A DNA stretch of 64,000 bases. Origin: Theodoxus fluviatilis (Eukaryota; Mollusca; Gastropoda; Cycloneritida; Neritidae). A program made the translations under genes and the position numbers. The notes below the pieces were generated by a model. That model saw only the letters and a program-made list of their open reading frames with translations. It was not told where the DNA came from and made no database searches. Position 1 is the first letter of the stretch, and every line of letters begins with the position of its first letter. The DNA is taken from the NCBI GenBank assembly GCA_034096865.1, contig JAWQFJ010000626.1:7501-71500 (forward strand), read 5' to 3'. Positions 1,344 to 58,912 of this stretch are shown piece after piece.

Positions 1344-1790
1344 CCCTTACAATGGAGAGAGGGTCTGGACAGGGAGAGGCTTTGAAGCCTTCTCTCATGC
1401 ACAATCCGAGGCTGGAGGACAGTGCTCTGCGAAAGTTGATCACCGAGAAGCTGAAGGAAAATAAGGACGGGAAGGGCGTAGACATTCTGGAGACACTGAA
1501 GGTGAACGGACAGGATGTGGAGTTGGCGAGCTCCTTGGAGGAGATGAAGCGACTCTTGGACGATGAGATCAGCAGCATCAACAGAAGCCGTGAGCTCCAG
1601 AATGCCTTCTGTACCGCTGATGCTGTGGACAAAAGGGAAGAGATGGAGATGGATTCAGCCCTTGGTGCCAGGGGTGATCAGGAGGAAGGCCCACATGCTG
1701 AAGAGATGCCAGCCGCTGTCCTTATCCTGCCTCAGGCTGAGAGGGAAAGTCTTGTCCCCTGTGTTGAGAACAGTTCTTTAAATGCTGATG
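1344..1790 (+). CDS. SON: SON orthologue, N-terminal acidic exon (internal exon)
   Basis: This exon is reached from a convincing acceptor (ctgac branch-like word, T-run, CAG at 1341-1343) and closes at GATG|GTAAGT (1791). The reading frame holds an ATG at 1352, and just upstream there is an in-frame TGA (1331-1333) inside the inferred intron. The coding part therefore either starts at 1352 or continues from an exon left of the window. The encoded ~147 residues are acidic and helical (LRKLITEKLKENKDGKG, LEEMKRLLDDEISS), comparable in position to the poorly conserved N-terminus of SON before its Lys-rich block. On its own this exon would not identify the gene. Assignment rests on the phase-1 match to the exon at 3548 and on the downstream domains. 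The first start codon is uncertain. Confidence 0.7.
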
Positions 1791-3095: not shown

Positions 3096-3197
3096 TTAAT
3101 ATCTTAGGGTCTACAGTGCATATTGCATTCACAGAATAAACACTTGTGCATCACACTGATCAGTTACAAGACTTGTAGCAAAGGCAGTAAGATCAAC

Positions 3198-3575
3198 AGC
3201 GTGGCTTGACAGTCTTGTTCCTATCTTACAGGCAACGCTGACCTGGCCAGCGCCACTCACAGCGTGGCTTGACAGTCTTGTTCCTATCTTACAGGCAACG
3301 CTGACCTGGCCAGCGCCACTCACAGCGTGGCTTGACAGTCTTGTTCCTATCTTACAGGCAACGCTGACCTGGCCAGCGCCACTCACAGCGTGGCTTGACA
3401 GTCTTGTTCCTATCTTACAGGCAATGCTGACCTGGCCAGCGCCACTCACAGCGTGGCTTGACAGTCTTGTTCCTATCTTACAGGCAACGCTGACCTGGCC
3501 AGCGCCACTCACAGCGTGGCTTGACAGTCTTGTTCCTATCTTACAGGCAAAGCTGAGCTGGCCAGCGCCACTCAC
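3198..3575 (+). repeat. Six 63-bp tandem copies, each with a 3' splice acceptor
   Basis: The unit contains a pyrimidine-rich acceptor (tgttcctatcttacag) followed by the first coding bases of the next SON exon. Copies begin at 3198, 3261, 3324, 3387, 3450 and 3513, so acceptor G bases fall at 3232, 3295, 3358, 3421, 3484 and 3547. Only the last acceptor leads into the open exon. After any earlier one, the same frame meets TGA in GTG GCT TGA inside the next unit. The array was therefore generated by duplicating an intron-exon junction. Confidence 0.95.
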
Positions 3576-3988
3576 AGCGAGTGTGAGGAAGAGGAGGCAG
3601 GCAAGGACAAGAAGAAAAGCAAGTCCAAGAAAAAGAAGAAGCACAAACACAAGAAGAAAAAGAAACACAAATCAGCCAAGGATAAAGAGAAGGAGAAGAC
3701 TTTCAAAGATGGAGAGAAGGGAATGGCTAAGAGGAAAAAGTTGGGCAGTGTTGAGAAAGATGGTGACAAACCCTCTCAGAAGACTGATGGTCAAGAAAAG
3801 TTGTCAGTTGTGACGATTTCAGCAGCAGCCTCTGCTGATGCGTCTGTCCCCAGGAGAGATTCCTCAGTGTCTGATTCCAAGAGTTCTGGGAACCGAAAGA
3901 AGGGTTCCAAGAAAACACTCGACAGTGCCAGCAAATCTAAGGGAAAAGAGGATGAGAAGAAATCAAAGACGAAACTTGGCCAAGATGG
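3548..3988 (+). CDS. SON: SON orthologue, Lys-rich exon
   Basis: Entered from the sixth acceptor (CAG at 3545-3547) in phase 1, which completes the Gly codon left open at 1790. It closes at GATGG|GTAAGA (3989) in phase 2. The ~147 residues start with an acidic stretch (SECEEEEAGKD) and then run into a Lys/His block (SKKKKKHKHKKKKKHK). This corresponds to the KKSKKHKKHKNKKKKKKK-type nuclear basic block near the SON N-terminus. The remainder is Lys/Ser/Asp-rich and disordered. Context: it follows the 63-bp acceptor array and precedes the RS exon. The match is compositional rather than a folded domain, so the family call depends on the downstream exons. Confidence 0.8.
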
Positions 3989-4618: not shown

Positions 4619-5998
4619 GCCTCCAAGATCCAGGAGCAAGTCGCAGGACAAGTCCAGCAGCCAAACCAAGAGGTTGAGGAGCCACACCAGACGGAGCCAA
4701 AGCAAATCCAAGCCATCAAAGAGCCAGTCCCGGCGCTCCAGGAACCGTTCACCCTCAAAATCTGCGTCACTCGGAGCCAGAAACAAGTCCAGGAGTAAGT
4801 CTCCAATAGAGTGGACTTCAACAGAGAAAGTATCCGGCAGATCTCGGAGTAAATCTCCCAAGGCAAAGACCTCGTCATCTGAGAAGGCAAAGGCCAAATC
4901 CAAAAGTAAATCCCCAAAAGCCAAGACATCATCCAGCAAAGGCAACAGCAGGTCTCGAAGCAGATCTCCCAAAGACAGGCTTCCATCTCATGGGGTCAGA
5001 GGTCATTCAAGAAGTAGGTCACCAAGGGTGAAGGCAGGGTCGCTGAAGGTCAGAAGCAAGACCAGGAGTCGTTCACCTAGGACAAAAGACTCCATACACA
5101 AGAGGAAAAGTAGGTCAAGAAGTAGGTCCCCAAGGAGAAGACCTGAGTCGCCCAGGACTGAGAGCAAGAAAAGGACTCGGTCACCAAAGTCTGAATCCTC
5201 ATCCCAGATGCCCAAGAGTAAATCTAAGAGTCCCCCCTCCAAAACCAAAAACAAGTCAAACAATGCTAAAAGCAAATCTAGGAGTCCATCACCCAAGACA
5301 AAGACATCAACACACAAGACCAGAGGCAAGTCTAGGAGCCAGTCACCAAGAAGAAAAACTGAGTCAGACAAACTCGAGAGTAAAACAAGAAGTCGTTCCC
5401 CTAAGACAAAACCTTCCGCAGACAAAGCTAAAGTTAGGTCTTTGAGTGGCTCGCCCACAACAAAATTGGCATCACACAAGCCTAGAAGTAAATCCCGCAG
5501 TCGCTCACCCAAGACGAAATCATCACTTCGCAAATCTAGAACCAAATCTAGGAGTCACTCACCCAAAGCAAAATCTTCATCTCACACGGCCAGAAGCAAA
5601 TCTAAGAGTCACTCACCCAAAGCAAAATCTTCATCTCACACGGCCAGAAGCAAATCTAAGAGTCACTCACCCAAAGCAAAATCTTCATCTCACACGGCCA
5701 GAAGCAAATCTAAGAGTCAAGGCCCCGAGACTCCAGCCTCTTCACGCAAGCGCAAGAGTCGGTCACGGAGTCGAAGTCTAAGGTCAAGGCCAGGGACAAA
5801 GAGGGCGAGATCTCGGAGTGGATCACCCCGACCCAAGACTGCAGGCAGCAGAGGCAGAAGCAGATCCAGGAGCAGACCCAGAGCACCTGCTGGCAGGTCG
5901 AAGTGGTCTAGGAGCAGGTCAAGGTCAAAAGGTCGGGAGTCAAGGTCAAAGGAACCAGAGTTCAAAATTGACAAGGCCCAGCTTCGAAGGATTGCCAT
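4619..5998 (+). CDS. SON: SON orthologue, large Arg/Ser (RS) domain exon
   Basis: This ~460-codon exon runs from a CAAAG acceptor (4618) in phase 2 to GCCAT|GTAAGT (5999). It encodes an almost continuous SR/RS domain: repeated KSRSRSPK, KTRSRSPKTK and SRSRSRSPRRR blocks typical of splicing proteins of nuclear speckles, where the serines are SR-kinase substrates. The exon ends with FKIDKAQLRRIA, matching the conserved DKAQLLEIAKAN helix that directly follows the RS domain in vertebrate SON; this is the first specific SON signature. A perfect in-frame 54-bp unit (SHSPKAKSSSHTARSKSK) is repeated three times at about 5550-5720. Open frames on the other strand here are composition shadows. Confidence 0.9.
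5550..5720 (+). repeat. 54-bp in-frame coding repeat, three copies
   Basis: Three essentially identical 54-bp units encode 18 residues each of the RS domain. Lack of silent differences between copies implies recent duplication or homogenisation. Confidence 0.9.
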
Positions 5999-7084: not shown

Positions 7085-10000
7085 GGTCGGTTACTGTAAC
7101 CACAACCAGTTTGTTGTTGCTGTCCACCAAGTACAGAGATGAGGTGGGTCTTACTATAACCACAACCAGTTTGTTGTTGCTGTCCACCAAGTACAGAGAT
7201 GAGGTGGGTCTTACTGTAACCACAACCAGTTTGTTGTTGCTGTCCTCCAAGTAGAGAGATGAGGTGGGACTTACTGTAACCACAACCAGTTTGTTGTTGC
7301 TGTCCTCCAAGTAGAGAGATGAGGTGGGTCTTACTGTAACCACAACCAGTTTGTTGTTGCTGTCCTCCAAGTAGAGAGATGAGGTGGGTCTTACTGTAAC
7401 CACAACCAGTTTGTTGTTGCTGTCCTCCAAGTAGAGAGATGAGGTGGGTCTTACCACAACCAGTTTGTTGTTGCTGTCCTCCAAGTAGAGAGATGAGGTG
7501 GGACTTACTGTAACCACAACCAGTTTGTTGTTGCTGTCCTCCAAGTAGAGAGATGAGGTGGGACTTACTGTAACCACAACCAGTTTGTTGTTGCTGTCCT
7601 CCAAGTAGAGAGATGAGGTGGGACTTACTGTAACCACAACCAGTTTGTTGTTGCTGTCCTCCAAGTAGAGAGATGAGGTGGGTACTTAACCACAACCAGT
7701 TTGTTGTTGCTGTCCTCCAAGTAGAGAGATGAGGTGGGACTTACTGTAACCACAACCAGTTTGTTGTTGCTGTCCTCCAAGTAGAGAGATGAGGTGGGAC
7801 TTACTGTAACCACAACCAGTTTGTTGTTGCTGTCCTCCAAGTAGAGAGATGAGGTGGGACTTACTGTAACCACAACCAGTTTGTTGTTGCTGTCCTCCAA
7901 GTAGAGAGATGAGGTGGGACTTACTGTAACCACAACCAGTTTGTTGTTGCTGTCCTCCAAGTAGAGAGATGAGGTGGGACTTACTGTAACCACAACCAGT
8001 TTGTTGTTGCTGTCCACCAAGTAGAGAGATGAGGTGGGTCTTACCACAACCAGTTTGTTGTTGCTGTCCTCCAAGTAGAGAGATGAGGTGGGACTTACTG
8101 TAACCACAACCAGTTTGTTGTTGCTGTCCTCCAAGTAGAGAGATGAGGTGGGTCTTACTGTAACCACAACCAGTTTGTTGTTGCTGTCCTCCAAGTAGAG
8201 AGATGAGGTGGGTCTTACTGTAACCACAACCAGTTTGTTGTTGCTGTCCACCAAGTACAGAGATGAGGTGGGTCTTACCACAACCAGTTTGTTGTTGCTG
8301 TCCTCCAAGTACAGAGATGAGGTGGGACTTACTGTAACCACAACCAGTTTGTTGTTGCTGTCCTCCAAGTACAGAGATGAGGTGGGACTTACTATAACCA
8401 CAACCAGTTTGTTGTTGCTGTCCTCCAAGTAGAGAGATGAGGTGGGACTTACTGTAACCACAACCAGTTTGTTGTTGCTGTCCTCCAAGTAGAGAGATGA
8501 GGTGGGACTTACTGTAACCACAACCAGGTTGTTGTTGCTGTCCTCCAAGTAGAGAGATGAGGTGGGTCTTACCACAACCAGTTTGTTGTTGCTGTCCTCC
8601 AAGTAGAGAGATGAGGTGGGACTTACTGTAACCACAACCAGGTTGTTGTTGCTGTCCTCCAAGTACAGAGATGAGGTGGGACTTACCACAACCAGGTTGT
8701 TGTTGCTGTCCTCCAAGTAGAGAGATGAGGTGGGACTTACTGTAACCACAACCAGTTTGTTGTTGCTGTCCTCCAAGTAGAGAGATGAGGTGGGTCTTAC
8801 TGTAACCACAACCAGTTTGTTGTTGCTGTCCTCCAAGTAGAGAGATGAGGTGGGACTTACTGTAACCACAACCAGTTTGTTGTTGCTGTCCTCCAAGTAG
8901 AGAGATGAGGTGGGTCTTACCACAACCAGTTTGTTGTTGCTGTCCTCCAAGTAGAGAGATGAGGTGGGTCTTACTATAACCACAACCAGTTTGTTGTTGC
9001 TGTCCTCCAAGTAGAGAGATGAGGTGGGTCTTACTGTAACCACAACCAGTTTGTTGTTGCTGTCCTCCAAGTACAGAGATGAGGTGGGTCTTACTGTAAC
9101 CACAACCAGGTTGTTGTTGCTGTCCACCAAGTACAGAGATGAGGTGGGTCTTACTGTAACCACAACCAGGTTGTTGTTGCTGTCCTCCAAGTAGAGAGAT
9201 GAGGTGGGACTTACTGTAACCACAACCAGTTTGTTGTTGCTGTCCTCCAAGTACAGAGATGAGGTGGGACTTACTGTAACCACAACCAGTTTGTTGTTGC
9301 TGTCCTCCAAGTAGAGAGATGAGGTGGGTCTTACCACAACCAGTTTGTTGTTGCTGTCCTCCAAGTACAGAGATGAGGTGGGACTTACTGTAACCACAAC
9401 CAGTTTGTTGTTGCTGTCCTCCAAGTAGAGATATGAGGTGGGTCTTGCTGTAACCACAACCAGTTTGTTGTTGCTGTCCTCCAAGTACAGAGATGAGGTG
9501 GGTCTTACTGTAACCACAACCAGTTTGTTGTTGCTGTCCTCCAAGTAGAGAGATGAGGTGGGACTTACTGTAACCACAACCAGTTTGTTGTTGCTGTCCT
9601 CCAAGTAGAGAGATGAGGTGGGACTTACCACAACCAGTTTGTTGTTGCTGTCCTCCAAGTAGAGAGATGAGGTGGGACTTACCACAACCAGTTTGTTGTT
9701 GCTGTCCTCCAAGTAGAGAGATGAGGTGGGACTTACCACAACCAGTTTGTTGTTGCTGTCCTCCAAGTAGAGAGATGAGGTGGGACTTACCACAACCAGT
9801 TTGTTGTTGCTGTCCTCCAAGTAGAGAGATGAGGTGGGTCTTACTGTAACCACAACCAGTTTGTTGTTGCTGTCCTCCAAGTAGAGAGATGAGGTGGGTC
9901 TTACTGTAACCACAACCAGTTTGTTGTTGCTGTCCTCCAAGTAGAGAGATGAGGTGGGACTTACTGTAACCACAACCAGTTTGTTGTTGCTGTCCTCCAA

Positions 10001-10890
10001 GTAGAGAGATGAGGTGGGTCTTACCACAACCAGTTTGTTGTTGCTGTCCTCCAAGTAGAGAGATGAGGTGGGTCTTACTGTAACCACAACCAGTTTGTTG
10101 TTGCTGTCCACCAAGTAGAGAGATGAGGTGGGTCTTACCACAACCAGTTTGTTGTTGCTGTCCACCAAGTACAGAGATGAGGTGGGACTTACTGTAACCA
10201 CAACCAGTTTGTTGTTGCTGTCCTCCAAGTAGAGAGATGAGGTGGGCCTTACTGTAACCACAACCAGTTTGTTGTTGCTGTCCTCCAAGTAGAGAGATGA
10301 GGTGGGTCTTACCACAACCAGTTTGTTGTTGCTGTCCACCAAGTACAGAGATGAGGTGGGTCTTACTGTAACCACAACCAGTTTGTTGTTGCTGTCCTCC
10401 AAGTACAGAGATGAGGTGGGTCTTACCACAACCAGTTTGTTGTTGCTGTCCACCAAGTACAGAGATGAGGTGGGACTTACTGTAACCACAACCAGTTTGT
10501 TGTTGCTGTCCTCCAAGTAGAGAGATGAGGTGGGTCTTACTGTAACCACAACCAGTTTGTTGTTGCTGTCCTCCAAGTACAGAGATGAGGTGGGTCTTAC
10601 CACAACCAGTTTGTTGTTGCTGTCCACCAAGTACAGAGATGAGGTGGGTCTTACTATAACCACAACCAGTTTGTTGTTGCTGTCCACCAAGTACAGAGAT
10701 GAGGTGGGTCTTACTGTAACCACAACCAGTTTGTTGTTGCTGTCCTCCAAGTACAGAGATGAGGTGGGACTTACTATAACCACAACCAGTTTGTTGTTGC
10801 TGTCCTCCAAGTACAGAGATGAGGTGGGTCTTACTGTAACCACAACCAGTTTGTTGTTGCTGTCCATCAAGTAGAGAGATGAGGTGGGTC
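7085..10890 (+). repeat. 3.8-kb tandem array of 60-bp and 54-bp units
   Basis: About 65 units of a sequence containing ccacaaccagtttgttgttg and agagagatgaggtggg. Two length classes alternate irregularly: 60 bp with cttactgtaacca, and 54 bp with cttacca. Both are multiples of three, so the opposite strand reads open for more than 1,000 codons with an 18/20-residue repeat. That openness needs only one stop-free unit and is not evidence of a gene. Point variants (gtag/gtac, tcctcc/tccacc, gggtc/gggac) are shuffled between units, typical of unequal exchange. The - strand of most units carries ACA|GTAAGT/GTAAGA, a donor-like word, but the host intron is transcribed from +. Confidence 0.95.
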
Positions 10891-11703
10891 TACTCTGATC
10901 CTGGGACCCACAGGAGGCTCATGGCAGGCCTATAAGGACACGCTTCTCCACAGACTTTTACCCATTTGGATGAAGGAAGAGGTTTTTTTCACCATGTCAG
11001 AGGGTTTGAGAATGTTGTTTCATTTTGGGCAGATAGCAAGTTGGTTGTTCAGATGTATCCAGACTGTAGCAATTTCACTGCAATCTTTTGAGCACTTTTT
11101 GTTTACCATTGCAGTGCTTAATGATTAATATTTTTATTACTGTGCACACCTTTTGCATTAGTTCCTTGAAGTCTAAATGTTCAAGTGAAGTCACAACTAT
11201 GAACACCTACAAGATCTGGCTTGCTGTATTAGATATACTCTTCGTTATTTGCCATGAATATATGCATTGCTGTATTGATATGGGAGTTTTCTTGTGGACC
11301 AATGCAAGGGGTTTATTCACCTCAAATGAAAATTGATACTTTCTTCACGTATATCATCCATGCTGGAGCGTTTGTGGACTTAAAAAAAATTGGCATCTTC
11401 AGACTGTTAGTTAGGGGAAGTAACTCCTGTAGCTTTGGTATGATTTATAGGTTGTTGTCTCCCTTGCATGGATTGGCTCCCATTCTGAGTATCCTTGTAT
11501 TGATTCACAGAAGTTCCATTCACTAAATTTCCATGGTGTGTGTGTGTGTGTGTGCGTTTGTTTGTGTGTGTGTGTGTGTGTGTGTGATATTCACAACCAG
11601 TTCCATTTTCCAAAGTTAGACTGTACTCAGTGTACTGAAAAGCGTTCTGTTGCAACTCCCTCGTACTGGAGACTGGCTGTACAGAGAGTGCTGATTGTTG
11701 CAG
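10891..11703 (+). other. Remainder of SON intron: (GT)n only
   Basis: Unique-looking intronic sequence with a GT microsatellite at about 11536-11586. No exon seen before the acceptor at 11701-11703. Confidence 0.6.
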
Positions 11704-21965: not shown

Positions 21966-22869
21966 CTTCTCTTTTTTTTTAATGACAAGCACCCTTTTTC
22001 AACCGTATTTTAGTATCATGATTCCAGACATTTTATCACCATTATTGGATCATTGCCTCTACCAATGAGCTTATGTTTTCCCCTCGGTTCATTTGTTTCT
22101 AGTTTGTTCATTAGTTATTTATTTGGCAAGAATAACTCCTAAAGTTCCAAATGAGATTCTGATAGATTTGGTGTGCGGTCAGGGTACCACCCAAAGAACA
22201 ACCCATCAAAGTTTTGAGGTTGTCTGTTATTTGCTAAATGCAACCATAAACAGGAATATGTATCACCCTAGGCTGTAGCCCTGCGCAGCAAAGCAGATCT
22301 AGTGTGTCTTTAGCCTCCCCCTAGCCTCGCGCAAGATCAGGGTCTTGTAATTAGGTGACAAAATTCACCTGTGAAGCAGCAATTCTAAATAGAATTGTTT
22401 AAATCCTAGACATCATCGCCAATCTCTCTGCATCGCTGTGTGTTGATTACGTCCACCTTGGCACAGGTTTGCACGCTACAAGTGCTCTGTAGTTTGATAA
22501 AGCTGTTGTTAGCACCTGGCAGCAAACGGACAGATGGGAAGCTTACAGTTGGGTAGGTGCATGAACAGCACTCCCTGGGGAGTGAAGTGTACAGGGGTTT
22601 GAAACCCAGACATGGGTGTTGAGGCTCTGCATACAACCAAATCTTTACCTTTTTACTCCTGCCCTGTGCTGATGCCAAGTTGCATCAGAGTTGAATCTTG
22701 CCTTGATGTTCCATCACCACCTGACAAAGTACACTGTTTTTCTCCTGCTCGGAAAATTGATGGCACTGTCTGCCTGTCATCCCTCACAGGCACCCTGTTG
22801 CTTCCCCTGGCTGGCTTTCCTGTAGGCACGGTCAGACTTGATCCCACCTTACAGCTGCACTGTTGTTCC

Positions 22870-23456
22870 ATGAAAATGTGTCACACCTCACAGCTACCCT
22901 GTTGTTCTCCTTCTGAAGCCCAGTCCATGGCCTAAGTCATATGTGCATGAATATGTGTCACACCTCACAGCTACCCTGTTGTTCTCCTTCTGAAGCCCAG
23001 TCCATGACCTAGGTAATGTGTGCATGAAAATGTGTCACACCTCACAGCTACCCTGTTTTTCTCCTTCTGAAGCCCAGTCCATGACCTAGGTAATGTGTGC
23101 ATGAAAATGTGTCACACCTCACAGCTACCCTGTTGTTCTCCTTCTGAAGCCCAGTCCATGGCCTAAGTCATATGTGCATGAAAATGTGTCACACCTCACA
23201 GCTATCCTGTTGTTCTCTTTCTGAAGCCCAGTCCATGGCCTAAATCATATGTACATGAAAATGTGTCACACCTCACAGCTACCATGTTGTTCTCTTTCTG
23301 AAGCCCAGTCCATGGCCTAAGTCATATGTACATGAAAATGTGTCACACCTCGCAGCTACTCTGTTGTTCTCCTTCCAAAGCCCAGTCCATGGCCTAGGTG
23401 ATGTGTGCATGAGCATTTGTCACACCTCACAGATACACTATTGTTTTCCTGCACAG
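22870..23456 (+). repeat. Eight 77-bp tandem copies ending in the SON acceptor
   Basis: Units begin at about 22870, 22947, 23024, 23101, 23178, 23255, 23332 and 23409, each starting catgaaaatgtgtcacacct and holding a T/C-rich tract with gttgttctccttctgaag. The eighth, most diverged, unit contains the real acceptor (tgttttcctgcacag, 23456). Its following exon bases align with the cccagtccatggcc that follows the tract in earlier units. The array therefore derives from, or has overrun, a splice junction. Confidence 0.9.
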
Positions 23457-29744: not shown

Positions 29745-29892
29745 GACACCTTCATCAAGGCAGCGCCGGTGAAAAGCGGCATTGGACTCAAGCTGCTGCA
29801 GAAGATGGGCTGGCGTGAAGGGGAGGGATTGGGCAAGCGCAACGAAGGCAACACCCAACCTCTCATGCTGGAATTCAAGCTGGACAGGAAGG
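29745..29892 (+). CDS. SON: SON orthologue, G-patch exon
   Basis: Bounded by CCTTGCAG and AGGAAGG|GTGAGG, leaving in phase 1. It encodes DTFIKAAPVKSGIGLKLLQ, KMGWREGEGLGKRNEGN and PLMLEFKLDRK. This is a complete G-patch: hydrophobic-G-x(2)-hydrophobic-L-x-KMGW-x-EG-x-GLGK, followed by the conserved PI/PL-x-hydrophobic-F-K-x-DRKG. KMGWREGEGLGK is identical to the vertebrate SON stretch. G-patch proteins typically bind RNA or activate DEAH helicases; in SON the patch sits between the linker and the dsRBM. The donor lies inside a purine-rich repeat that re-creates donor words downstream. Confidence 0.97.
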
Positions 29893-30215
29893 GTGAGGAG
29901 AGAGGGAGGAAGGAAGGGTGGGGAGAGAGGAAGGAAGGAAGAGTAAGGAGAGAGGGAGGAAGGAAGGGTGAGGAGAGAGGGAGGAAGGGTGGGGAAGGAG
30001 GGAGAGAGGGAGGAAGGGTGGGGAAGGAGGGAGAGAGGGAGGAAGGAAGAGTGAGGAGGGAGGGAGGAAGGAAGGGTGAGGAGAGAGGGAGGGAAGTAGG
30101 AAGGAAAAGTGAGGAGAGAAGGAGGAAGGAAGGAGAGAGGGAGGAAGGGTAAGGAGAGAGAGGAAGGAAGGGTGAAGAGAGAGGAAGGGTGAGGAGAGAG
30201 GTGGAAAGGATGGAT
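29880..30215 (+). repeat. Purine-rich repeat reiterating the G-patch exon donor
   Basis: Starting at the exon end, ~22-bp purine units (aggaagggtgaggagagagg and variants) continue for over 300 bp. Donor-like GGTGAGG or GGTAAGG words recur near 29966, 30073, 30107, 30146 and 30186. The exon frame stays open for 87 codons beyond the normal donor (Arg/Glu/Lys/Gly-rich, to 30152). Confidence 0.88.
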
Positions 30216-31040
30216 GGATGGATTGGGCTGCATGGGACAGATAGGATAGAAGGATGGATGGAGGGGGTGGATGATTCATTGGATGGATAGATGGATGAAT
30301 TGGATGGATGATGGACAGATGAATGGTTGATGGATGGATGGATGAATTGGAATGATTGGGATGGATGAATGTATGGATGAATTGATGGGTGGATGAATGG
30401 AATGATTTGATGGATGGAAGGATGATGGATGGATGGATGAAAAAGGAAAAAAGGAGGTAAGAAGGAAAGAAAGATGGAATGAATAGGACTGAAGAGGAGA
30501 AGAATGACAAAAAGGGCAAAGAGGGAAAAAGGACAAAGGGGGGAGGTGGATGAGAGGGAGGGAATTGCAGTAGTGATGGAAAGAGGGAGACAGACGATGT
30601 AGGGAGGCAGAGGAGGAGGAAGAGGAAACAGGAAGGAAAAAAGAAAAAAAAGGAGGAGCAGGAGGAGGAAGAGGACGACGACGATGATGGTGATGATGAT
30701 GATGATGATGATGATGATTGATGATTGATTGATTTATTGATGATTGATGATGACGATGATGAGACAGAAGAACAGGAATTGAAGTAAATAAGAAGCAGAT
30801 GGAGCAAAACAGAAGTATAAGAAGGAAGGCAAGAGGTGGAGGAGGAAAAGTAGAAAAGAGGAGGAGGAGGAGTGTTGTTAGCAGCAAGAGAGGGAACAGA
30901 CATCTACTGGAATAGCTAGAGGAACTGGAGGATAGGAATGAACATTAGAAGAAGAAGAAGAAGAAGAAGAAGAAGAAGAAGAAGAAGAAGAAGAAGAAGA
31001 AGAAGAAGAAGAAGAAGAAGAAGAAGAAGAAGAAGAAGGG
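30200..31040. repeat. (GGAT)n, purine-rich, (GAT)n and (AAG)n microsatellites
   Basis: GGAT/ATGG runs at 30205-30440, purine-rich sequence to 30690, a GAT run at about 30690-30725, and a 90-bp AAG run at 30948-31037. Long Ser/Pro/His readings from the other strand are artefacts. Confidence 0.93.
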
Positions 31041-31481: not shown

Positions 31482-31941
31482 ATTTGTATCTGAATCTGTG
31501 TGTGTGCCTGTATCTCCTTGCTGTGTTATGGTGACATTGACTTCTGAATCTGTGTGTTTCTGTATTTCCTTGCTGTGGTATGGTGACATTGACTTCTGAA
31601 TCTGTGTGTGTGTCTGTATCTCCTTGCTGTGTCACGGGGACATTTGTATCTGAATCTGTGTCTGTGCCTGTATCTCCTTGCTGTGTTCTGGTGACATTTG
31701 CATCTGAATCTGTGTGTGTGTATCTCCTTGCTGTGTTCTGGTGACATTTGCATCTGAATCTGTGTGTGTGCCTGTATCTCCTTGCTGTGTCCTGGGGACA
31801 TTTGTATCTGAATCTGTGTGTGTGCCTGTATCTCCTTGCTGTGTTCTGGTGACATTTGCATCTGAATCTGTGTGTGTGTGTGTGTGTATCTCCTTGCTGT
31901 GTTCTGGGGACATTTGTATCTGAATCTGTGTGTGTGTGTGT
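31482..31941 (+). repeat. ~54-57-bp minisatellite fused to a SON exon end
   Basis: About eight units containing tctgaatctgtgtgtg and gtatctccttgctgtgt, with a variable internal GT run. The last unit passes directly into the coding tail at 31942 without an AG acceptor. Confidence 0.93.
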
Positions 31942-31974
31942 GGCCCTGACCACAAGAAAAACTTTCTTTTCAAG
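31942..31974 (+). CDS. SON: SON orthologue, truncated dsRBM exon (3' end only)
   Basis: The last 11 codons before a GTATGT donor (31975) read GPDHKKNFLFK, phase 0. They match the SON dsRBM strand region SGPDHRKHFLFR and join in frame to the final exon (VIVNKVEYQ). Upstream the sequence is a GT microsatellite and minisatellite, with an in-frame TGA at 31921-31923 and no acceptor. The 5' part of this exon, and the preceding codons equivalent to vertebrate GLVAVGERAQKR through KHPVSALMEICNKRRW, are not in the window. Either the N gap has removed them or the repeat has expanded inside the exon. Confidence 0.75.
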
Positions 31975-32149
31975 GTATGTCCCGGCACCCTGGTGCTATT
32001 TTTGGTTGCTTTGTTGGAGTTTTGAGATCTGATGCAAGGGAATGTGGAATGGAGGTGCTGGTCAGTAGTTGTGGGTTTTTAAAAAGAGGAAACAGACAAA
32101 AACACACAGGCAGGCAGGCAGGAGGAGAGGCAGGGGAAGAGAGAGTGAC

Positions 32150-33015: not shown

Positions 33016-33147
33016 GTGATAGTCAACAAAGTGGAGTACCAGTCTACGGTTGCCAGTAGCAACAAGAAGGCAGCCAAAGCTCAGGCAGCTGCTGTATGTC
33101 TGCAGCAGTTTGGACTCATCACCCCTGACACCCCCCTCATCATCTGA
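33016..33147 (+). CDS. SON: SON orthologue, terminal exon, end of dsRBM
   Basis: Acceptor CCTGCACAG (33013-33015), phase 0, stop TGA at 33145-33147. It encodes VIVNKVEYQSTVASSNKKAA and KAQAAAVCLQQFGLITPDTP. This matches the C-terminal dsRBM helix of vertebrate SON (FLFRVLINGS...ASPNKKHAKATAATVVLQAMGL): the basic NKKxAK box at the helix start and the Ala-rich helix are both present. The protein ends LITPDTPLII. The codons for those last residues and the stop are then copied about twenty times in the 3' UTR. Confidence 0.95.
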   Translation: MIVNKVEYQSTVASSNKKAAKAQAAAVCLQQFGLITPDTPLII

Positions 33148-33785
33148 GGATCACCCCTGACACCCCCCTCATCATCTGAGTATCACCCCTGACACCCCCC
33201 TCATCATCTGAGTATCACCCCTTACACCCCCCTCATCATCTGAGGATCACCCCTGACACCCCCCTCATCATCTGAGGATCACCCCTGACACCCCTCTCAT
33301 CATCTGAGTATCACCCCTGACACCCCCCTCATCATCTGAGTATCACCCCTGACACCCCCCTCATCATCTGAGTATCACCCCTGACACACCCCCTCATCAT
33401 CTGAGTATCACCCTGACACCCCCCTCATCATCTGAGTATCACCCCTGACACCCCCCTCATCATCTGAGTATCACCCCTGACACCCCCCTCATCATCTGAG
33501 TATCACCCCTGACACCCCTCTCATCATCTGAGTATCACCCCTGACACCCCCTCATCATCTGAGTATCACCCCTGACACCCCCCTCATCATCTGAGTATCA
33601 CCCCTGACACCCCCCTCATCATCTGAGTATCACCCCTGACACCCCTCTCATCATCTGAGTATCACCCCTGACACCCCCCTCATCATCTGAGTATCACCCC
33701 TGACACCCCCCTCATCATCTGAGTATCACCCCTGACACCCCCCTCATCATCTGAGTATCACCCCTGACACCCCCTCATCATCTGA
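33114..33785 (+). repeat. ~21 copies of a 32-bp unit that includes the SON stop codon
   Basis: The unit tatcacccctgacacccccc + tcatcatctgag starts within the last coding codons and continues through 640 bp of 3' UTR, each copy with its own TGA. Variation is limited to C-run length and gatc/tatc. The period is not a multiple of three. Confidence 0.95.
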
Positions 33786-41796: not shown

Positions 41797-44700
41797 TGCA
41801 AACATAACATTATGAGAGTAGCGTGCAGTGGCTATTGCTTTGAAGGATAAAATAAACATAGCATTATGAGAGTAGCGTGCAGTGGCTATTGCTTTGAAGG
41901 ATAAAATAAACATAACATTATGAGAGTAGCGTGCAGTGGCTATTGCTTTGAAGGATAAAATAAACATAACATTATGAGAGTAGCGTGCAGTGGTTATTGC
42001 TTTGAAGGATAAAAGAATGTGGAATGAGAGTAGCGTGCAGTGGTTATTGCTGTGAAGGATAAAAGAATGTGGAATGAGAGTAGCGTGCAGTGGTTATTGC
42101 TGTGAAGGATAAAAGAATGTGCAATGAGAGTAGCGTGCAGTGGCTGTTGCTGTGAAGGATAAAAGAATGTGGAATGAGAGTAGCGTGCAGTGGCTGTTGC
42201 TGTGAAGGATAAAAGAATGTGGAATGAGAGTAGCGTGCAGTGGCTGTTGCTGTGAAGGATAAAAGAATGTGGAATGAGAGTAGCGTGCAGTGGCTGTTGC
42301 TGTGAAGGATAAAAGAATGTGGAATGAGAGTAGCGTGCAGTGGCTGTTGCTGTGAAGGATAAAAGAATGTGGAATGAGAGTAGCGTGCAGTGGCTGTTGC
42401 TGTGAAGGATAAAAGAATGTGGAATGAGAGTAGCGTGCAGTGGCTGTTGCTGTGAAGGATAAAAGAATGTGGAATGAGAGTAGCGTGCAGTGGCTGTTGC
42501 TGTGAAGGATAAAAGAATGTGGAATGAGAGTAGCGTGCAGTGGCTGTTGCTGTGAAGGATAAAAGAATGTGGAATGAGAGTAGCGTGCAGTGGCTGTTGC
42601 TGTGAAGGATAAAAGAATGTGGAATGAGAGTAGCGTGCAGTGGCTGTTGCTGTGAAGGATAAAAGAATGTGGAATGAGAGTAGCGTGCAGTGGCTGTTGC
42701 TGTGAAGGATAAAAGAATGTGGAATGAGAGTAGCGTGCAGTGGCTGTTGCTGTGAAGGATAAAAGAATGTGGAATGAGAGTAGCGTGCAGTGGCTGTTGC
42801 TGTGAAGGATAAAAGAATGTGGAATGAGAGTAGCGTGCAGTGGCTGTTGCTGTGAAGGATAAAAGAATGTGGAATGAGAGTAGCGTGCAGTGGCTGTTGC
42901 TGTGAAGGATAAAAGAATGTGGAATGAGAGTAGCGTGCAGTGGCTGTTGCTGTGAAGGATAAAAGAATGTGGAATGAGAGTAGCGTGCAGTGGCTGTTGC
43001 TGTGAAGGATAAAAGAATGTGGAATGAGAGTAGCGTGCAGTGGCTGTTGCTGTGAAGGATAAAAGAATGTGGAATGAGAGTAGCGTGCAGTGGCTGTTGC
43101 TGTGAAGGATAAAAGAATGTGGAATGAGAGTAGCGTGCAGTGGCTGTTGCTGTGAAGGATAAAAGAATGTGGAATGAGAGTAGCGTGCAGTGGCTGTTGC
43201 TGTGAAGGATAAAAGAATGTGGAATGAGAGTAGCGTGCAGTGGCTATTGCTGTGAAGGATAAAAGAATGTGGAATGAGAGTAGCGTGCAGTGGTTATTGC
43301 TGTGAAGGATAAAAGAATGTGGAATGAGAGTAGCGTGCAGTGGTTATTGCTGTGAAGGATAAAAGAATGTGGAATGAGAGTAGCGTGCAGTGGCTATTGC
43401 TGTGAAGGATAAAAGAATGTGGAATGAGAGTAGCGTGCAGTGGCTNNNNNNNNNNTGCTGTGAAGGATAAAAGAATGTGGAATGAGAGTAGCGTGCAGTG
43501 GCTGTTGCTGTGAAGGATGAAAGAATGTGGAATGAGAGTAGCGTGCAGTGGCTGTTGCTGTGAAGGATAAAAGAATGTGGAATGAGAGTAGCGTGCAGTG
43601 GCTGTTGCTGTGAAGGATAAAAGAATGTGGAATGAGAGTAGCGTGCAGTGGCTGTTGCTGTGAAGGATAAAAGAATGTGGAATGAGAGTAGCGTGCAGTG
43701 GTTATTGCTGTGAAGGATAAAAGAATGTGGAATGAGAGTAGCGTGCAGTGGTGTTGCTGTGAAGGATAAAAGAATGTGGAATGAGAGTAGCGTGCAGTGG
43801 CTGTTGCTGTGAAGGATAAAAGAATGTGGAATGAGAGTAGCGTGCAGTGGCTGTTGCTGTGAAGGATAAAAGAATGTGGAATGAGAGTAGCGTGCAGTGG
43901 TTATTGCTGTGAAGGATAAAAGAATGTGGAATGAGAGTAGCGTGCAGTGGTTATTGCTGTGAAGGATAAAAGAATGTGGAATGAGAGTAGCGTGCAGTGG
44001 TTATTGCTGTGAAGGATAAAAGAATGTGGAATGAGAGTAGCGTGCAGTGGTTGTTGCTGTGAAGGATAAAAGAATGTGGAATGAGAGTAGCGTGCAGTGG
44101 CTATTGCTGTGAAGGATAAAAGAATGTGGAATGAGAGTAGCGTGCAGTGGCTATTGCTGTGAAGGATAAAAGAATGTGGAATGAGAGTAGCGTGCAGTGG
44201 TTATTGCTGTGAAGGATAAAAGAATGTGGAATGAGAGTAGCGTGCAGTGGTTATTGCTGTGAAGGATAAAAGAATGTGGAATGAGAGTAGCGTGCAGTGG
44301 TTATTGCTGTGAAGGATAAAAGAATGTGGAATGAGAGTAGCGTGCAGTGGTTATTGCTGTGAAGGATAAAAGAATGTGGAATGAGAGTAGCGTGCAGTGG
44401 TTATTGCTGTGAAGGATAAAAGAATGTGGAATGAGAGTAGCGTGCAGTGGTTATTGCTGTGAAGGATAAAAGAATGTGGAATGAGAGTAGCGTGCAGTGG
44501 TTATTGCTGTGAAGGATAAAAGAATGTGGAATGAGAGTAGCGTGCAGTGGTTATTGCTGTGAAGGATAAAAGAATGTGGAATGAGAGTAGCGTGCAGTGG
44601 TTATTGCTGTGAAGGATAAAAGAATGTGGAATGAGAGTAGCGTGCAGTGGTTATTGCTGTGAAGGATAAAAGAATGTGGAATGAGAGTAGCGTGCAGTGG

Positions 44701-47700
44701 TTATTGCTGTGAAGGATAAAAGAATGTGGAATGAGAGTAGCGTGCAGTGGTTATTGCTGTGAAGGATAAAAGAATGTGGAATGAGAGTAGCGTGCAGTGG
44801 TTATTGCTGTGAAGGATAAAAGAATGTGGAATGAGAGTAGCGTGCAGTGGTTATTGCTGTGAAGGATAAAAGAATGTGGAATGAGAGTAGCGTGCAGTGG
44901 TTATTGCTGTGAAGGATAAAAGAATGTGGAATGAGAGTAGCGTGCAGTGGCTGTTGCTGTGAAGGATAAAAGAATGTGGAATGAGAGTAGCGTGCAGTGG
45001 CTGTTGCTGTGAAGGATAAAAGAATGTGGAATGAGAGTAGCGTGCAGTGGTTATTGCTGTGAAGGATAAAAGAATGTGGAATGAGAGTAGCGTGCAGTGG
45101 TTATTGCTGTGAAGGATAAAAGAATGTGGAATGAGAGTAGCGTGCAGTGGTTATTGCTGTGAAGGATAAAAGAATGTGGAATGAGAGTAGCGTGCAGTGG
45201 CTGTTGCTGTGAAGGATAAAAGAATGTGGAATGAGAGTAGCGTGCAGTGGTTGTTGCTGTGAAGGATAAAAGAATGTGGAATGAGAGTAGCGTGCAGTGG
45301 CTGTTGCTGTGAAGGATAAAAGAATGTGGAATGAGAGTAGCGTGCAGTGGCTGTTGCTGTGAAGGATAAAAGAATGTGGAATGAGAGTAGCGTGCAGTGG
45401 CTGTTGCTGTGAAGGATAAAAGAATGTGGAATGAGAGTAGCGTGCAGTGGCTGTTGCTGTGAAGGATAAAAGAATGTGGAATGAGAGTAGCGTGCAGTGG
45501 CTGTTGCTGTGAAGGATAAAAGAATGTGGAATGAGAGTAGCGTGCAGTGGCTGTTGCTGTGAAGGATAAAAGAATGTGGAATGAGAGTAGCGTGCAGTGG
45601 TGTACCTGTGAAGGATAAAAGAATGTGGAATGAGAGTAGCGTGCAGTGGCTGTTGCTGTGAAGGATAAAAGAATGTGGAATGAGAGTAGCGTGCAGTGGC
45701 TGTTGCTGTGAAGGATAAAAGAATGTGGAATGAGAGTAGCGTGCAGTGGCTGTTGCTGTGAAGGATAAAAGAATGTGGAATGAGAGTAGCGTGCAGTGGC
45801 TGTTGCTGTGAAGGATAAAAGAATGTGGAATGAGAGTAGCGTGCAGTGGCTGTTGCTGTGAAGGATAAAAGAATGTGGAATGAGAGTAGCGTGCAGTGGC
45901 TGTTGCTGTGAAGGATAAAAGAATGTGGAATGAGAGTAGCGTGCAGTGGTGTTGCTGTGAAGGATAAAAGAATGTGGAATGAGAGTAGCGTGCAGTGGCT
46001 GTTGCTGTGAAGGATAAAAGAATGTGGAATGAGAGTAGCGTGCAGTGGCTGTTGCTGTGAAGGATAAAAGAATGTGGAATGAGAGTAGCGTGCAGTGGCT
46101 GTTGCTGTGAAGGATAAAAGAATGTGGAATGAGAGTAGCGTGCAGTGGCTGTTGCTGTGAAGGATAAAAGAATGTGGAATGAGAGTAGCGTGCAGTGGCT
46201 GTTGCTGTGAAGGATAAAAGAATGTGGAATGAGAGTAGCGTGCAGTGGCTGTTGCTGTGAAGGATAAAAGAATGTGGAATGAGAGTAGCGTGCAGTGGCT
46301 GTTGCTGTGAAGGATAAAAGAATGTGGAATGAGAGTAGCGTGCAGTGGCTGTTGCTGTGAAGGATAAAAGAATGTGGAATGAGAGTAGCGTGCAGTGGCT
46401 GTTGCTGTGAAGGATAAAAGAATGTGGAATGAGAGTAGCGTGCAGTGGCTGTTGCTGTGAAGGATAAAAGAATGTGGAATGAGAGTAGCGTGCAGTGGCT
46501 GTTGCTGTGAAGGATAAAAGAATGTGGAATGAGAGTAGCGTGCAGTGGCTGTTGCTGTGAAGGATAAAAGAATGTGGAATGAGAGTAGCGTGCAGTGGCT
46601 GTTGCTGTGAAGGATAAAAGAATGTGGAATGAGAGTAGCGTGCAGTGGCTGTTGCTGTGAAGGATAAAAGAATGTGGAATGAGAGTAGCGTGCAGTGGCT
46701 GTTGCTGTGAAGGATAAAAGAATGTGGAATGAGAGTAGCGTGCAGTGGCTGTTGCTGTGAAGGATAAAAGAATGTGGAATGAGAGTAGCGTGCAGTGGCT
46801 GTTGCTGTGAAGGATAAAAGAATGTGGAATGAGAGTAGCGTGCAGTGGCTGTTGCTGTGAAGGATAAAAGAATGTGGAATGAGAGTAGCGTGCAGTGGCT
46901 GTTGCTGTGAAGGATAAAAGAATGTGGAATGAGAGTAGCGTGCAGTGGCTGTTGCTGTGAAGGATAAAAGAATGTGGAATGAGAGTAGCGTGCAGTGGCT
47001 GTTGCTGTGAAGGATAAAAGAATGTGGAATGAGAGTAGCGTGCAGTGGCTGTTGCTGTGAAGGATAAAAGAATGTGGAATGAGAGTAGCGTGCAGTGGCT
47101 GTTGCTGTGAAGGATAAAAGAATGTGGAATGAGAGTAGCGTGCAGTGGCTGTTGCTGTGAAGGATAAAAGAATGTGGAATGAGAGTAGCGTGCAGTGGCT
47201 GTTGCTGTGAAGGATAAAAGAATGTGGAATGAGAGTAGCGTGCAGTGGCTGTTGCTGTGAAGGATAAAAGAATGTGGAATGAGAGTAGCGTGCAGTGGCT
47301 GTTGCTGTGAAGGATAAAAGAATGTGGAATGAGAGTAGCGTGCAGTGGCTGTTGCTGTGAAGGATAAAAGAATGTGGAATGAGAGTAGCGTGCAGTGGCT
47401 GTTGCTGTGAAGGATAAAAGAATGTGGAATGAGAGTAGCGTGCAGTGGCTGTTGCTGTGAAGGATAAAAGAATGTGGAATGAGAGTAGCGTGCAGTGGCT
47501 GTTGCTGTGAAGGATAAAAGAATGTGGAATGAGAGTAGCGTGCAGTGGCTGTTGCTGTGAAGGATAAAAGAATGTGGAATGAGAGTAGCGTGCAGTGGCT
47601 GTTGCTGTGAAGGATAAAAGAATGTGGAATGAGAGTAGCGTGCAGTGGCTGTTGCTGTGAAGGATAAAAGAATGTGGAATGAGAGTAGCGTGCAGTGGCT

Positions 47701-50700
47701 GTTGCTGTGAAGGATAAAAGAATGTGGAATGAGAGTAGCGTGCAGTGGCTGTTGCTGTGAAGGATAAAAGAATGTGGAATGAGAGTAGCGTGCAGTGGCT
47801 GTTGCTGTGAAGGATAAAAGAATGTGGAATGAGAGTAGCGTGCAGTGGCTGTTGCTGTGAAGGATAAAAGAATGTGGAATGAGAGTAGCGTGCAGTGGCT
47901 GTTGCTGTGAAGGATAAAAGAATGTGGAATGAGAGTAGCGTGCAGTGGCTGTTGCTGTGAAGGATAAAAGAATGTGGAATGAGAGTAGCGTGCAGTGGCT
48001 GTTGCTGTGAAGGATAAAAGAATGTGGAATGAGAGTAGCGTGCAGTGGCTGTTGCTGTGAAGGATAAAAGAATGTGGAATGAGAGTAGCGTGCAGTGGCT
48101 GTTGCTGTGAAGGATAAAAGAATGTGGAATGAGAGTAGCGTGCAGTGGCTGTTGCTGTGAAGGATAAAAGAATGTGGAATGAGAGTAGCGTGCAGTGGCT
48201 GTTGCTGTGAAGGATAAAAGAATGTGGAATGAGAGTAGCGTGCAGTGGCTGTTGCTGTGAAGGATAAAAGAATGTGGAATGAGAGTAGCGTGCAGTGGCT
48301 GTTGCTGTGAAGGATAAAAGAATGTGGAATGAGAGTAGCGTGCAGTGGCTGTTGCTGTGAAGGATAAAAGAATGTGGAATGAGAGTAGCGTGCAGTGGCT
48401 GTTGCTGTGAAGGATAAAAGAATGTGGAATGAGAGTAGCGTGCAGTGGCTGTTGCTGTGAAGGATAAAAGAATGTGGAATGAGAGTAGCGTGCAGTGGCT
48501 GTTGCTGTGAAGGATAAAAGAATGTGGAATGAGAGTAGCGTGCAGTGGCTGTTGCTGTGAAGGATAAAAGAATGTGGAATGAGAGTAGCGTGCAGTGGCT
48601 GTTGCTGTGAAGGATAAAAGAATGTGGAATGAGAGTAGCGTGCAGTGGCTGTTGCTGTGAAGGATAAAAGAATGTGGAATGAGAGTAGCGTGCAGTGGCT
48701 GTTGCTGTGAAGGATAAAAGAATGTGGAATGAGAGTAGCGTGCAGTGGCTGTTGCTGTGAAGGATAAAAGAATGTGGAATGAGAGTAGCGTGCAGTGGCT
48801 GTTGCTGTGAAGGATAAAAGAATGTGGAATGAGAGTAGCGTGCAGTGGCTGTTGCTGTGAAGGATAAAAGAATGTGGAATGAGAGTAGCGTGCAGTGGCT
48901 GTTGCTGTGAAGGATAAAAGAATGTGGAATGAGAGTAGCGTGCAGTGGCTGTTGCTGTGAAGGATAAAAGAATGTGGAATGAGAGTAGCGTGCAGTGGCT
49001 GTTGCTGTGAAGGATAAAAGAATGTGGAATGAGAGTAGCGTGCAGTGGCTGTTGCTGTGAAGGATAAAAGAATGTGGAATGAGAGTAGCGTGCAGTGGCT
49101 GTTGCTGTGAAGGATAAAAGAATGTGGAATGAGAGTAGCGTGCAGTGGCTGTTGCTGTGAAGGATAAAAGAATGTGGAATGAGAGTAGCGTGCAGTGGCT
49201 GTTGCTGTGAAGGATAAAAGAATGTGGAATGAGAGTAGCGTGCAGTGGCTGTTGCTGTGAAGGATAAAAGAATGTGGAATGAGAGTAGCGTGCAGTGGCT
49301 GTTGCTGTGAAGGATAAAAGAATGTGGAATGAGAGTAGCGTGCAGTGGCTGTTGCTGTGAAGGATAAAAGAATGTGGAATGAGAGTAGCGTGCAGTGGCT
49401 GTTGCTGTGAAGGATAAAAGAATGTGGAATGAGAGTAGCGTGCAGTGGCTGTTGCTGTGAAGGATAAAAGAATGTGGAATGAGAGTAGCGTGCAGTGGCT
49501 GTTGCTGTGAAGGATAAAAGAATGTGGAATGAGAGTAGCGTGCAGTGGTTATTGCTGTGAAGGATAAAAGAATGTGGAATGAGAGTAGCGTGCAGTGGCT
49601 GTTGCTGTGAAGGATAAAAGAATGTGGAATGAGAGTAGCGTGCAGTGGCTGTTGCTGTGAAGGATAAAAGAATGTGGAATGAGAGTAGCGTGCAGTGGCT
49701 GTTGCTGTGAAGGATAAAAGAATGTGGAATGAGAGTAGCGTGCAGTGGTAGTTGCTGTGAAGGATAAAAGAATGTGGAATGAGAGTAGCGTGCAGTGGCT
49801 GTTGCTGTGAAGGATAAAAGAATGTGGAATGAGAGTAGCGTGCAGTGGTTGTTGCTGTGAAGGATAAAAGAATGTGGAATGAGAGTAGCGTGCAGTGGTT
49901 GTTGCTGTGAAGGATAAAAGAATGTGGAATGAGAGTAGCGTGCAGTGGCTGTTGCTGTGAAGGATAAAAGAATGTGGAATGAGAGTAGCGTGCAGTGGCT
50001 ATTGCTGTGAAGGATAAAAGAATGTGGAATGAGAGTAGCGTGCAGTGGTTGTTGCTGTGAAGGATAAAAGAATGTGGAATGAGAGTAGCGTGCAGTGGTT
50101 GTTGCTGTGAAGGATAAAAGAATGTGGAATGAGAGTAGCGTGCAGTGGCTGTTGCTGTGAAGGATAGAATAATGTGGAATGAGAGTAGCGTGCAGTGGTT
50201 GTTGCTGTGAAGGATAAAAGAATGTGAAATGAGAGTAGCGTGCAGTGGTTGTTGCTGTGAAGGATAAAAGAATGTGGAATGAGAGTAGCGTGCAGTGGCT
50301 GTTGCTGTGAAGGATAAAAGAATGTGGAATGAGAGTAGCGTGCAGTGGCTATTGCTGTGAAGGATAAAAGAATGTGGAATGAGAGTAGCGTGCAGTGGTT
50401 GTTGCTGTGAAGGATAAAAGAATGTGGAATGAGAGTAGCGTGCAGTGGCTGTTGCTGTGAAGGATAAAAGAATGTGGAATGAGAGTAGCGTGCAGTGGTT
50501 GTTGCTGTGAAGGATAAAAGAATGTGGAATGAGAGTAGCGTGCAGTGGCTGTTGCTGTGAAGGATAAAAGAATGTGGAATGAGAGTAGCGTGCAGTGGCT
50601 GTTGCTGTGAAGGATAAAAGAATGTGGAATGAGAGTAGCGTGCAGTGGCTATTGCTTTGAAGGATAAAAGAATGTGGAATGAGAGTAGCGTGCAGTGGTT

Positions 50701-58905: not shown

Positions 58906-58912
58906 GGAATTT

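What the first reader, a model, noticed from the sequence alone, without database searches (positions are those of the whole stretch)
3198..3575. Ladder of six duplicate splice acceptors before one SON exon, five of them leading to a premature stop
Each 63-bp unit repeats the pyrimidine tract, the CAG and the first coding bases of the next exon. Because 63 is a multiple of three, every acceptor sets the same frame, and in the first five the frame meets TGA (GTG GCT TGA) in the next unit. Only use of the last acceptor gives full-length protein. Unless the upstream sites are silenced, the array would act like a poison cassette that lowers SON output. Since SON itself assists recognition of weak splice sites, an autoregulatory loop is conceivable.
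Basis: partly seen in the sequence, partly recalled or inferred. Interest (0 to 1): 0.82.

Follow-up and report, generated by a model that had tools for sequence, protein, structure and literature searches.

The report
Minisatellite repeating a SON splice acceptor
In what looks like a snail's SON gene, a 63-base tandem repeat has copied one intron-exon border six times; it is most likely a by-product of a repeat-rich genome, of a kind already described in lancelets, rather than a purpose-built off-switch.

Summary
In detail: 6.1 copies of a 63-bp unit (3196-3579, 98% matches) span an intron end and the start of the next exon of SON. Acceptors 1-5 lead to TGA; acceptor 6 gives a nine-exon, 1061-aa open frame. 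The species is probably a gastropod (best hit Haliotis rubra, 60%). All six acceptors are identical 23-mers, so the site sequence cannot rank them.

The five stops are one event, met by chance about half the time (0.48). The same gene holds a likely older, decayed acceptor array at exon 8, and splice acceptors are not hit more often than random points (2 of 9 against 128 of 400). Lancelet papers call such arrays 'mirages' and report normal splicing. In one published test duplicated globin acceptors spliced only to the distal site, inefficiently. Best reading: a recent, neutral or mildly costly mirage, acceptor 6 used. A regulatory poison ladder is not excluded; no RNA data were available.

The parts
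3196..3579 (+). 63-bp tandem array (6 units plus 6 bp) over the 3' end of an intron and the start of the next SON exon; six acceptors, first exon bases 3232, 3295, 3358, 3421, 3484, 3547
3232..3522 (+). Decoy acceptors 1-5 and the TGA stops they lead to (3270, 3333, 3396, 3459, 3522); each TGA lies inside the next unit's TTGAC, a candidate branch point 23 nt before the junction
   Evidence: branch-point role inferred from consensus
3547..3988 (+). SON exon behind the last acceptor (442 nt), lysine-rich, with GAA/GAG-rich start
1352..1790 (+). Upstream SON coding exon (ATG at 1352, donor GTAAGT at 1791); its true 5' end is not settled
3196..3201 (+). ACAGCG, shared with 3574-3579: possible microhomology at which the first duplication arose
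   Evidence: role inferred
22869..23456 (+). Second, likely older acceptor array in the same gene: seven diverged 77-bp units before the exon-8 acceptor (exon from 23457)
29745..29892 (+). SON G-patch exon, supports gene identity; its donor lies in a 25-bp purine-rich array (29886-30188)

Best explanation
It is a 'mirage' minisatellite: a tandem duplication, perhaps begun between two 6-bp ACAGCG copies and then expanded and homogenised, whose 63-bp unit happens to hold a complete 3' splice site plus 27 nt of exon. The last copy (acceptor 6) is the working acceptor, favoured by the purine-rich, enhancer-like exon directly behind it and by a 442-nt rather than 505-757-nt exon. The five upstream copies may bind splicing factors; their likely cost is slower removal of this intron and a minority of transcripts ending at TGA and lost to nonsense-mediated decay. 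Shown: the anatomy, the single open frame, the other arrays. Inferred: the microhomology origin, the use of acceptor 6, the cost.
For: Only acceptor 6 continues the SON frame. Units 1-3 and 5 identical, edge unit 6 most different, the pattern of a recent homogenised array whose border copy is spared, as described for lancelet BflGb6. A second acceptor array in the same gene with decayed decoys: all seven end in AAG against CAG in the true site, 11-14 of 21 exon-start bases kept, approximate score 6.8-9.5 against 10.1. Arrays of period 10 or more cover 27% of the SON span, and acceptors are not enriched for spanning copies: 2 of 9 against 128 of 400 random positions. GAA/GAG triplets in the first 63 nt: 6 behind acceptor 6, 0 behind each of the other five. 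Published: lancelet mirages in globin, Adh and TnC said not to disturb splicing; duplicated beta-globin acceptors with 14, 55 or 205 nt of exon behind the proximal site spliced only to the distal site and inefficiently, and double occupancy inhibits splicing.
Against: All six sites are identical over 23 nt, so nothing at the site itself tells the spliceosome to skip five. Each unit appears to carry its own branch point. I recall early duplication experiments that favoured the proximal site, and a cited title on 5'-to-3' scanning (reference list) points the same way; PMC5389562 notes that proximal exon length was reported to matter. In humans, repeats at exon-intron borders can change splicing (PMC2812944, abstract and passages). 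No RNA data; no second haplotype; the genome search did not complete.
Confidence: 0.68

Rival explanations
1. Poison ladder: decoy acceptors take a regulated share of SON transcripts, which stop early and are degraded, lowering SON output, possibly under feedback by SON itself.
For: Five strong, identical acceptors lead to a stop 466-718 nt before the exon's own donor, which by the usual rule (recalled) would trigger decay. Splicing factors commonly autoregulate by poison exons (abstracts listed). Heterozygous loss of SON causes disease in humans, so dose matters (abstracts listed).
Against: The stop is expected by chance about half the time. No enrichment of arrays at splice acceptors. The sites are strong, not weak. 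Dose sensitivity also argues against a large constant loss. Searches listed no title or abstract start on SON poison exons or SON feedback (4 of 4 and 12 of 23 listed); passages of two of those papers name SON only as a speckle component, antibody or data set.
Confidence: 0.1
2. Occupancy bottleneck: the decoys are rarely joined, but several acceptors occupied at once slow or block removal of this intron, so intron retention, not the stop, sets SON output.
For: A duplicated strong acceptor bound two sets of U2AF and U2, spliced poorly, and spliced several-fold better when occupancy was competed away (PMC5389562, section 12).
Against: In vitro result with two sites, in a human extract; lancelet arrays with up to six units are said to splice regularly.
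Confidence: 0.12
3. Assembly artefact: the true locus has fewer units, perhaps one.
For: The window has two 10-N gaps, one beside another array; near-identical units are hard to assemble.
Against: Units 4 and 6 carry differences of their own; 384 bp fits inside one long read; collapse is the commoner error (recalled); another acceptor array with diverged units lies in the same gene.
Confidence: 0.07

Closest known systems
'Mirage' minisatellites of lancelets (globin BflGb6 and BflGb9, Adh3, TnC, PGBD5; passages of PMC3087553 and PMC3902484)
   Same: Tandem units spanning an intron-exon border, with splice AG in many units; BflGb6 has six and three units in two haplotypes, over the 3' intron end and exon start as here; identical inner units and a different border unit.
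   Different: Units there are 150-160 bp in BflGb6 (10-72 bp in Adh3), 63 bp here; here the animal is probably a gastropod and the gene a splicing cofactor. RT-PCR was done there, not here.
Internal tandem repeats at exon-intron boundaries of human duplicated genes (PMC2812944, abstract and passages)
   Same: Minisatellites at exon-intron borders, copy-number variable, about 30-bp units repeated about 4 times on average.
   Different: There they can produce new introns with transcript support; here no transcript is known.
Duplicated 3' splice-site test substrates (beta-globin; PMC5389562)
   Same: Several equal acceptors with short exon pieces behind the proximal ones.
   Different: Artificial, two sites, in vitro; here six natural sites.
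Autoregulatory poison exons of splicing factors (Smndc1, RBM39; abstract starts)
   Same: A splice choice that would bring a stop into the mRNA of a splicing factor.
   Different: No separate cassette exon, no conservation or regulation shown; the stop is repeated intron sequence.

Membership tests
Mirage minisatellite | Tandem repeat units span an exon-intron border and repeat a splice signal | tested here: met
Mirage minisatellite | Splicing stays regular, using the border unit | not testable with these tools
   no RNA data; only the frame argument
Mirage minisatellite | Copy number differs between haplotypes | not testable with these tools
   one haplotype; the genome search unanswered (14 calls)
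Poison exon / unproductive splicing switch | Alternative junction puts a stop more than about 50 nt before a downstream junction | tested here: met
   on paper only
Poison exon / unproductive splicing switch | The alternative junction is used, and rises when decay is blocked | not testable with these tools
   no RNA data
Poison exon / unproductive splicing switch | Conservation of the poison element | not tested
   only proteins, no genomic DNA, of relatives were in hand
SON | RS-rich region, conserved C-terminal blocks and G-patch, in this order | tested here: met
SON | C-terminal double-stranded-RNA-binding domain | tested here: inconclusive
   a 12-residue match near 31942 and the last exon at 33017-33148 are present; the domain's start was not found

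The most novel reading that the evidence does not exclude
A ladder of identical acceptors, variable in copy number, acts as a rheostat of SON: each added unit takes a share of nascent transcripts, by joining to a stop or by blocking occupancy, so that allele length sets the dose of a general splicing cofactor and thereby the fidelity of weak introns across the transcriptome.
Probability: 0.07. Interest if true: 0.8.

Novelty: new member of a known kind. Interest (0 to 1): 0.4.

Why it matters
Such arrays are natural versions of the duplicated-acceptor constructs used to study how the spliceosome chooses between equal sites. Six acceptors identical over 23 nt, in a splicing cofactor gene, with a likely older decayed array in the same gene, give a clean natural test: if only the last is used, exon context and not the site decides. 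It would also carry the lancelet 'mirage' idea to what is probably a gastropod; my one search for gastropod cases (12 of 66 papers listed) showed no title or abstract start on this, which is not proof of absence.

Tried and rejected
Genome-wide count of such arrays: the genome search was asked the same question 14 times and never answered. RNA structure hiding the decoys: z-score -0.70, 29 of 100 shuffles fold at least as well; rejected. Array as coding repeat: one + frame is open from 3160 to 3810, but it is not the SON frame; rejected. Recursive splicing: the AG is followed by GC, not GT; not pursued. Mini-introns inside the array: the GTs there (AGC|GTGGCT, ACA|GTCTTG, CTT|GTTCCT) look poor as donors; not scored. 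Rfam: no match in the window. First protein search with residues 1-170: 1479 candidates, none at E 0.001 or better. Orthologue alignment: the aligner misplaced the window protein's N-terminal part, so pairwise comparison was used; the intron position in other species could not be read. The splice score uses base frequencies recalled approximately, not a published program; two other AGs in this intron (exon starts 1971 and 2685) score higher than the array, so the score alone does not decide use. Multiples of three: of 21 array periods of 20 or more that I picked by hand from the list (overlapping rows and most of the 40.8-41.8 kb cluster dropped), 9 are multiples of three, so 63 is unremarkable. 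In one search exon 5 was ended one base early (also in the query), and exon 8 was begun one base late; both were set right. Two papers were opened and gave only reference-list or unrelated passages (PMC9225289, PMC12480690).

Full report
What is there. The array is real: 63-bp period, 6.1 copies, 3196-3579, 98% matches; a 33-nt junction probe matches 6 times in the window and in none of 100 shuffles. Each unit has 36 nt of intron end (candidate branch point TTGAC with its A 23 nt before the first exon base, a pyrimidine tract, TTACAG) and 27 nt of exon start. The TGA met by the first five (from 3270, 3333, 3396, 3459, 3522) is part of the next unit's TTGAC. The 23 nt around the junction are identical in all six; unit 4 differs from units 1-3 and 5 by one base, unit 6 by two. 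The array ends share ACAGCG, which suggests, but does not prove, a first duplication by microhomology.

The gene. With acceptor 6, nine exons join in one open frame of 1061 aa with a G-patch (E 1.6e-14). Of the ten best protein matches, seven bear the name of a gastropod (best Haliotis rubra, 60% identity over 99% of residues 740-1061), one of a bivalve, two no name (that these genera are gastropods is my knowledge). The exon before the array shares a motif with Haliotis rufescens SON (16 of 30 residues), and the exon behind it has a lysine-rich block like that seen in the other gastropod SON proteins (matched by eye, as the aligner put the N-terminal part elsewhere). So acceptor 6 makes SON and the other five cannot. 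Whether 1352 is the true start is open: the eight relatives have more residues before the shared motif, and a possible acceptor lies just before the ATG.

How surprising are the stops? Of all starts in this intron, 48% meet a stop within 13 codons. As the units are copies, five stops are one event. The ladder needs no design.

Context. Arrays of period 10 or more cover 27% of the SON span and 46% of the window. For nine acceptors I searched the 1 kb before each for copies reaching 8 nt or more to either side of the junction: two have them, this one and exon 8. Of 400 random positions in the span, 128 had such copies, so acceptors are not enriched. At exon 8 seven 77-bp units precede the true acceptor; their exon-like parts keep 11-14 of 21 bases of the true exon start, all seven end in AAG against CAG, and approximate scores are 6.8-9.5 against 10.1. 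In one search only two of the seven reached 8 nt across the junction, so this older array is likely, not certain. Six of the seven decoys lead to a stop; the one at 23304 is open to the end of exon 8, 276 nt, a multiple of three. Of nine donors, exon 9's lies in an array, but its copies cover only 7 exonic nt, below the criterion. The stop codon also lies in an array. Not counted: the acceptor of the exon near 31.94 kb, which I could not find, and any exons outside the window.

Mechanism. The lancelet cases are the nearest match. Passages of PMC3087553 describe arrays over the 3' intron end and exon start of BflGb6, six and three units in two haplotypes, with Adh3 data and RT-PCR suggesting regular splicing, though the repeats could serve as cryptic sites. 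A passage of PMC3902484 says that Adh and TnC mirages do not give aberrant mRNAs and proposes the same for PGBD5. PMC5389562 (abstract, section 12, passages; [quoted passage not shown] Here the proximal exon pieces are 27 nt. GAA/GAG triplets number 6 in the first 63 nt behind acceptor 6 and 0 behind each other acceptor, which fits enhancer-driven choice of the last site. I therefore expect acceptor 6 to dominate, perhaps with slow splicing; this is inference.

SON feedback. SON is reported to help weak splice sites (PMC8455679, passages), whereas the array's sites score high: 10 of 5580 + strand AGs score as high or higher, the six included. Heterozygous SON loss causes human disease (abstract starts), which argues against a large constant loss. 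Two searches (4 papers, 12 of 23 listed) showed no title or abstract start on a SON poison exon or SON feedback, and the passages shown of two of those papers name SON only as a speckle component, antibody or data set. The library holds open-licence papers only.

Against my reading. Identical sites give no local reason to skip five of them; I recall early experiments that favoured the proximal site; human repeats at exon-intron borders can alter splicing (PMC2812944); there are no RNA data, no second haplotype and no genome-wide comparison.

Verdict. Observation confirmed, interpretation partly supported, a new member of a known kind; moderate interest as a natural test of acceptor choice.

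Noticed in passing
window 22869-23456: A second acceptor-spanning array: seven diverged 77-bp units before the SON exon-8 acceptor; the decoy at 23304 is open and in frame to the end of exon 8.
   Followed up: partly
window 29886-30188: The donor of the G-patch exon (29892) lies at the start of a 25-bp purine-rich array; GGGTGAGGA occurs 4 times in 29881-30220, the true donor included.
   Followed up: partly
window 33118-33785: The SON stop codon lies in a 32-bp array of 20.9 copies; TCATCATCTGA occurs 21 times in the stretch.
   Followed up: partly
window 31482-31977: A 54-bp array (8.5 copies) beside a 10-N gap runs up to a SON-like stretch (GPDHKKNFLFKV) for which I saw no AG acceptor; the start of the double-stranded-RNA-binding domain was not found, so the assembly may be faulty here.
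   Followed up: partly
window 7085-10891: 60-bp array, 65 copies, inside a SON intron; on the - strand ACAGTAAG, a donor-like string, occurs 41 times and GTAAG 62 times, and the repeat is open in reading frames.
   Followed up: no
window 41812-58906: A 17-kb array of a 50-bp unit, with one 10-N gap at 43446-43455.
   Followed up: no
window 5538-5719: An in-frame 54-bp coding repeat (3.4 copies, 98% matches) in the RS-rich exon of SON.
   Followed up: no
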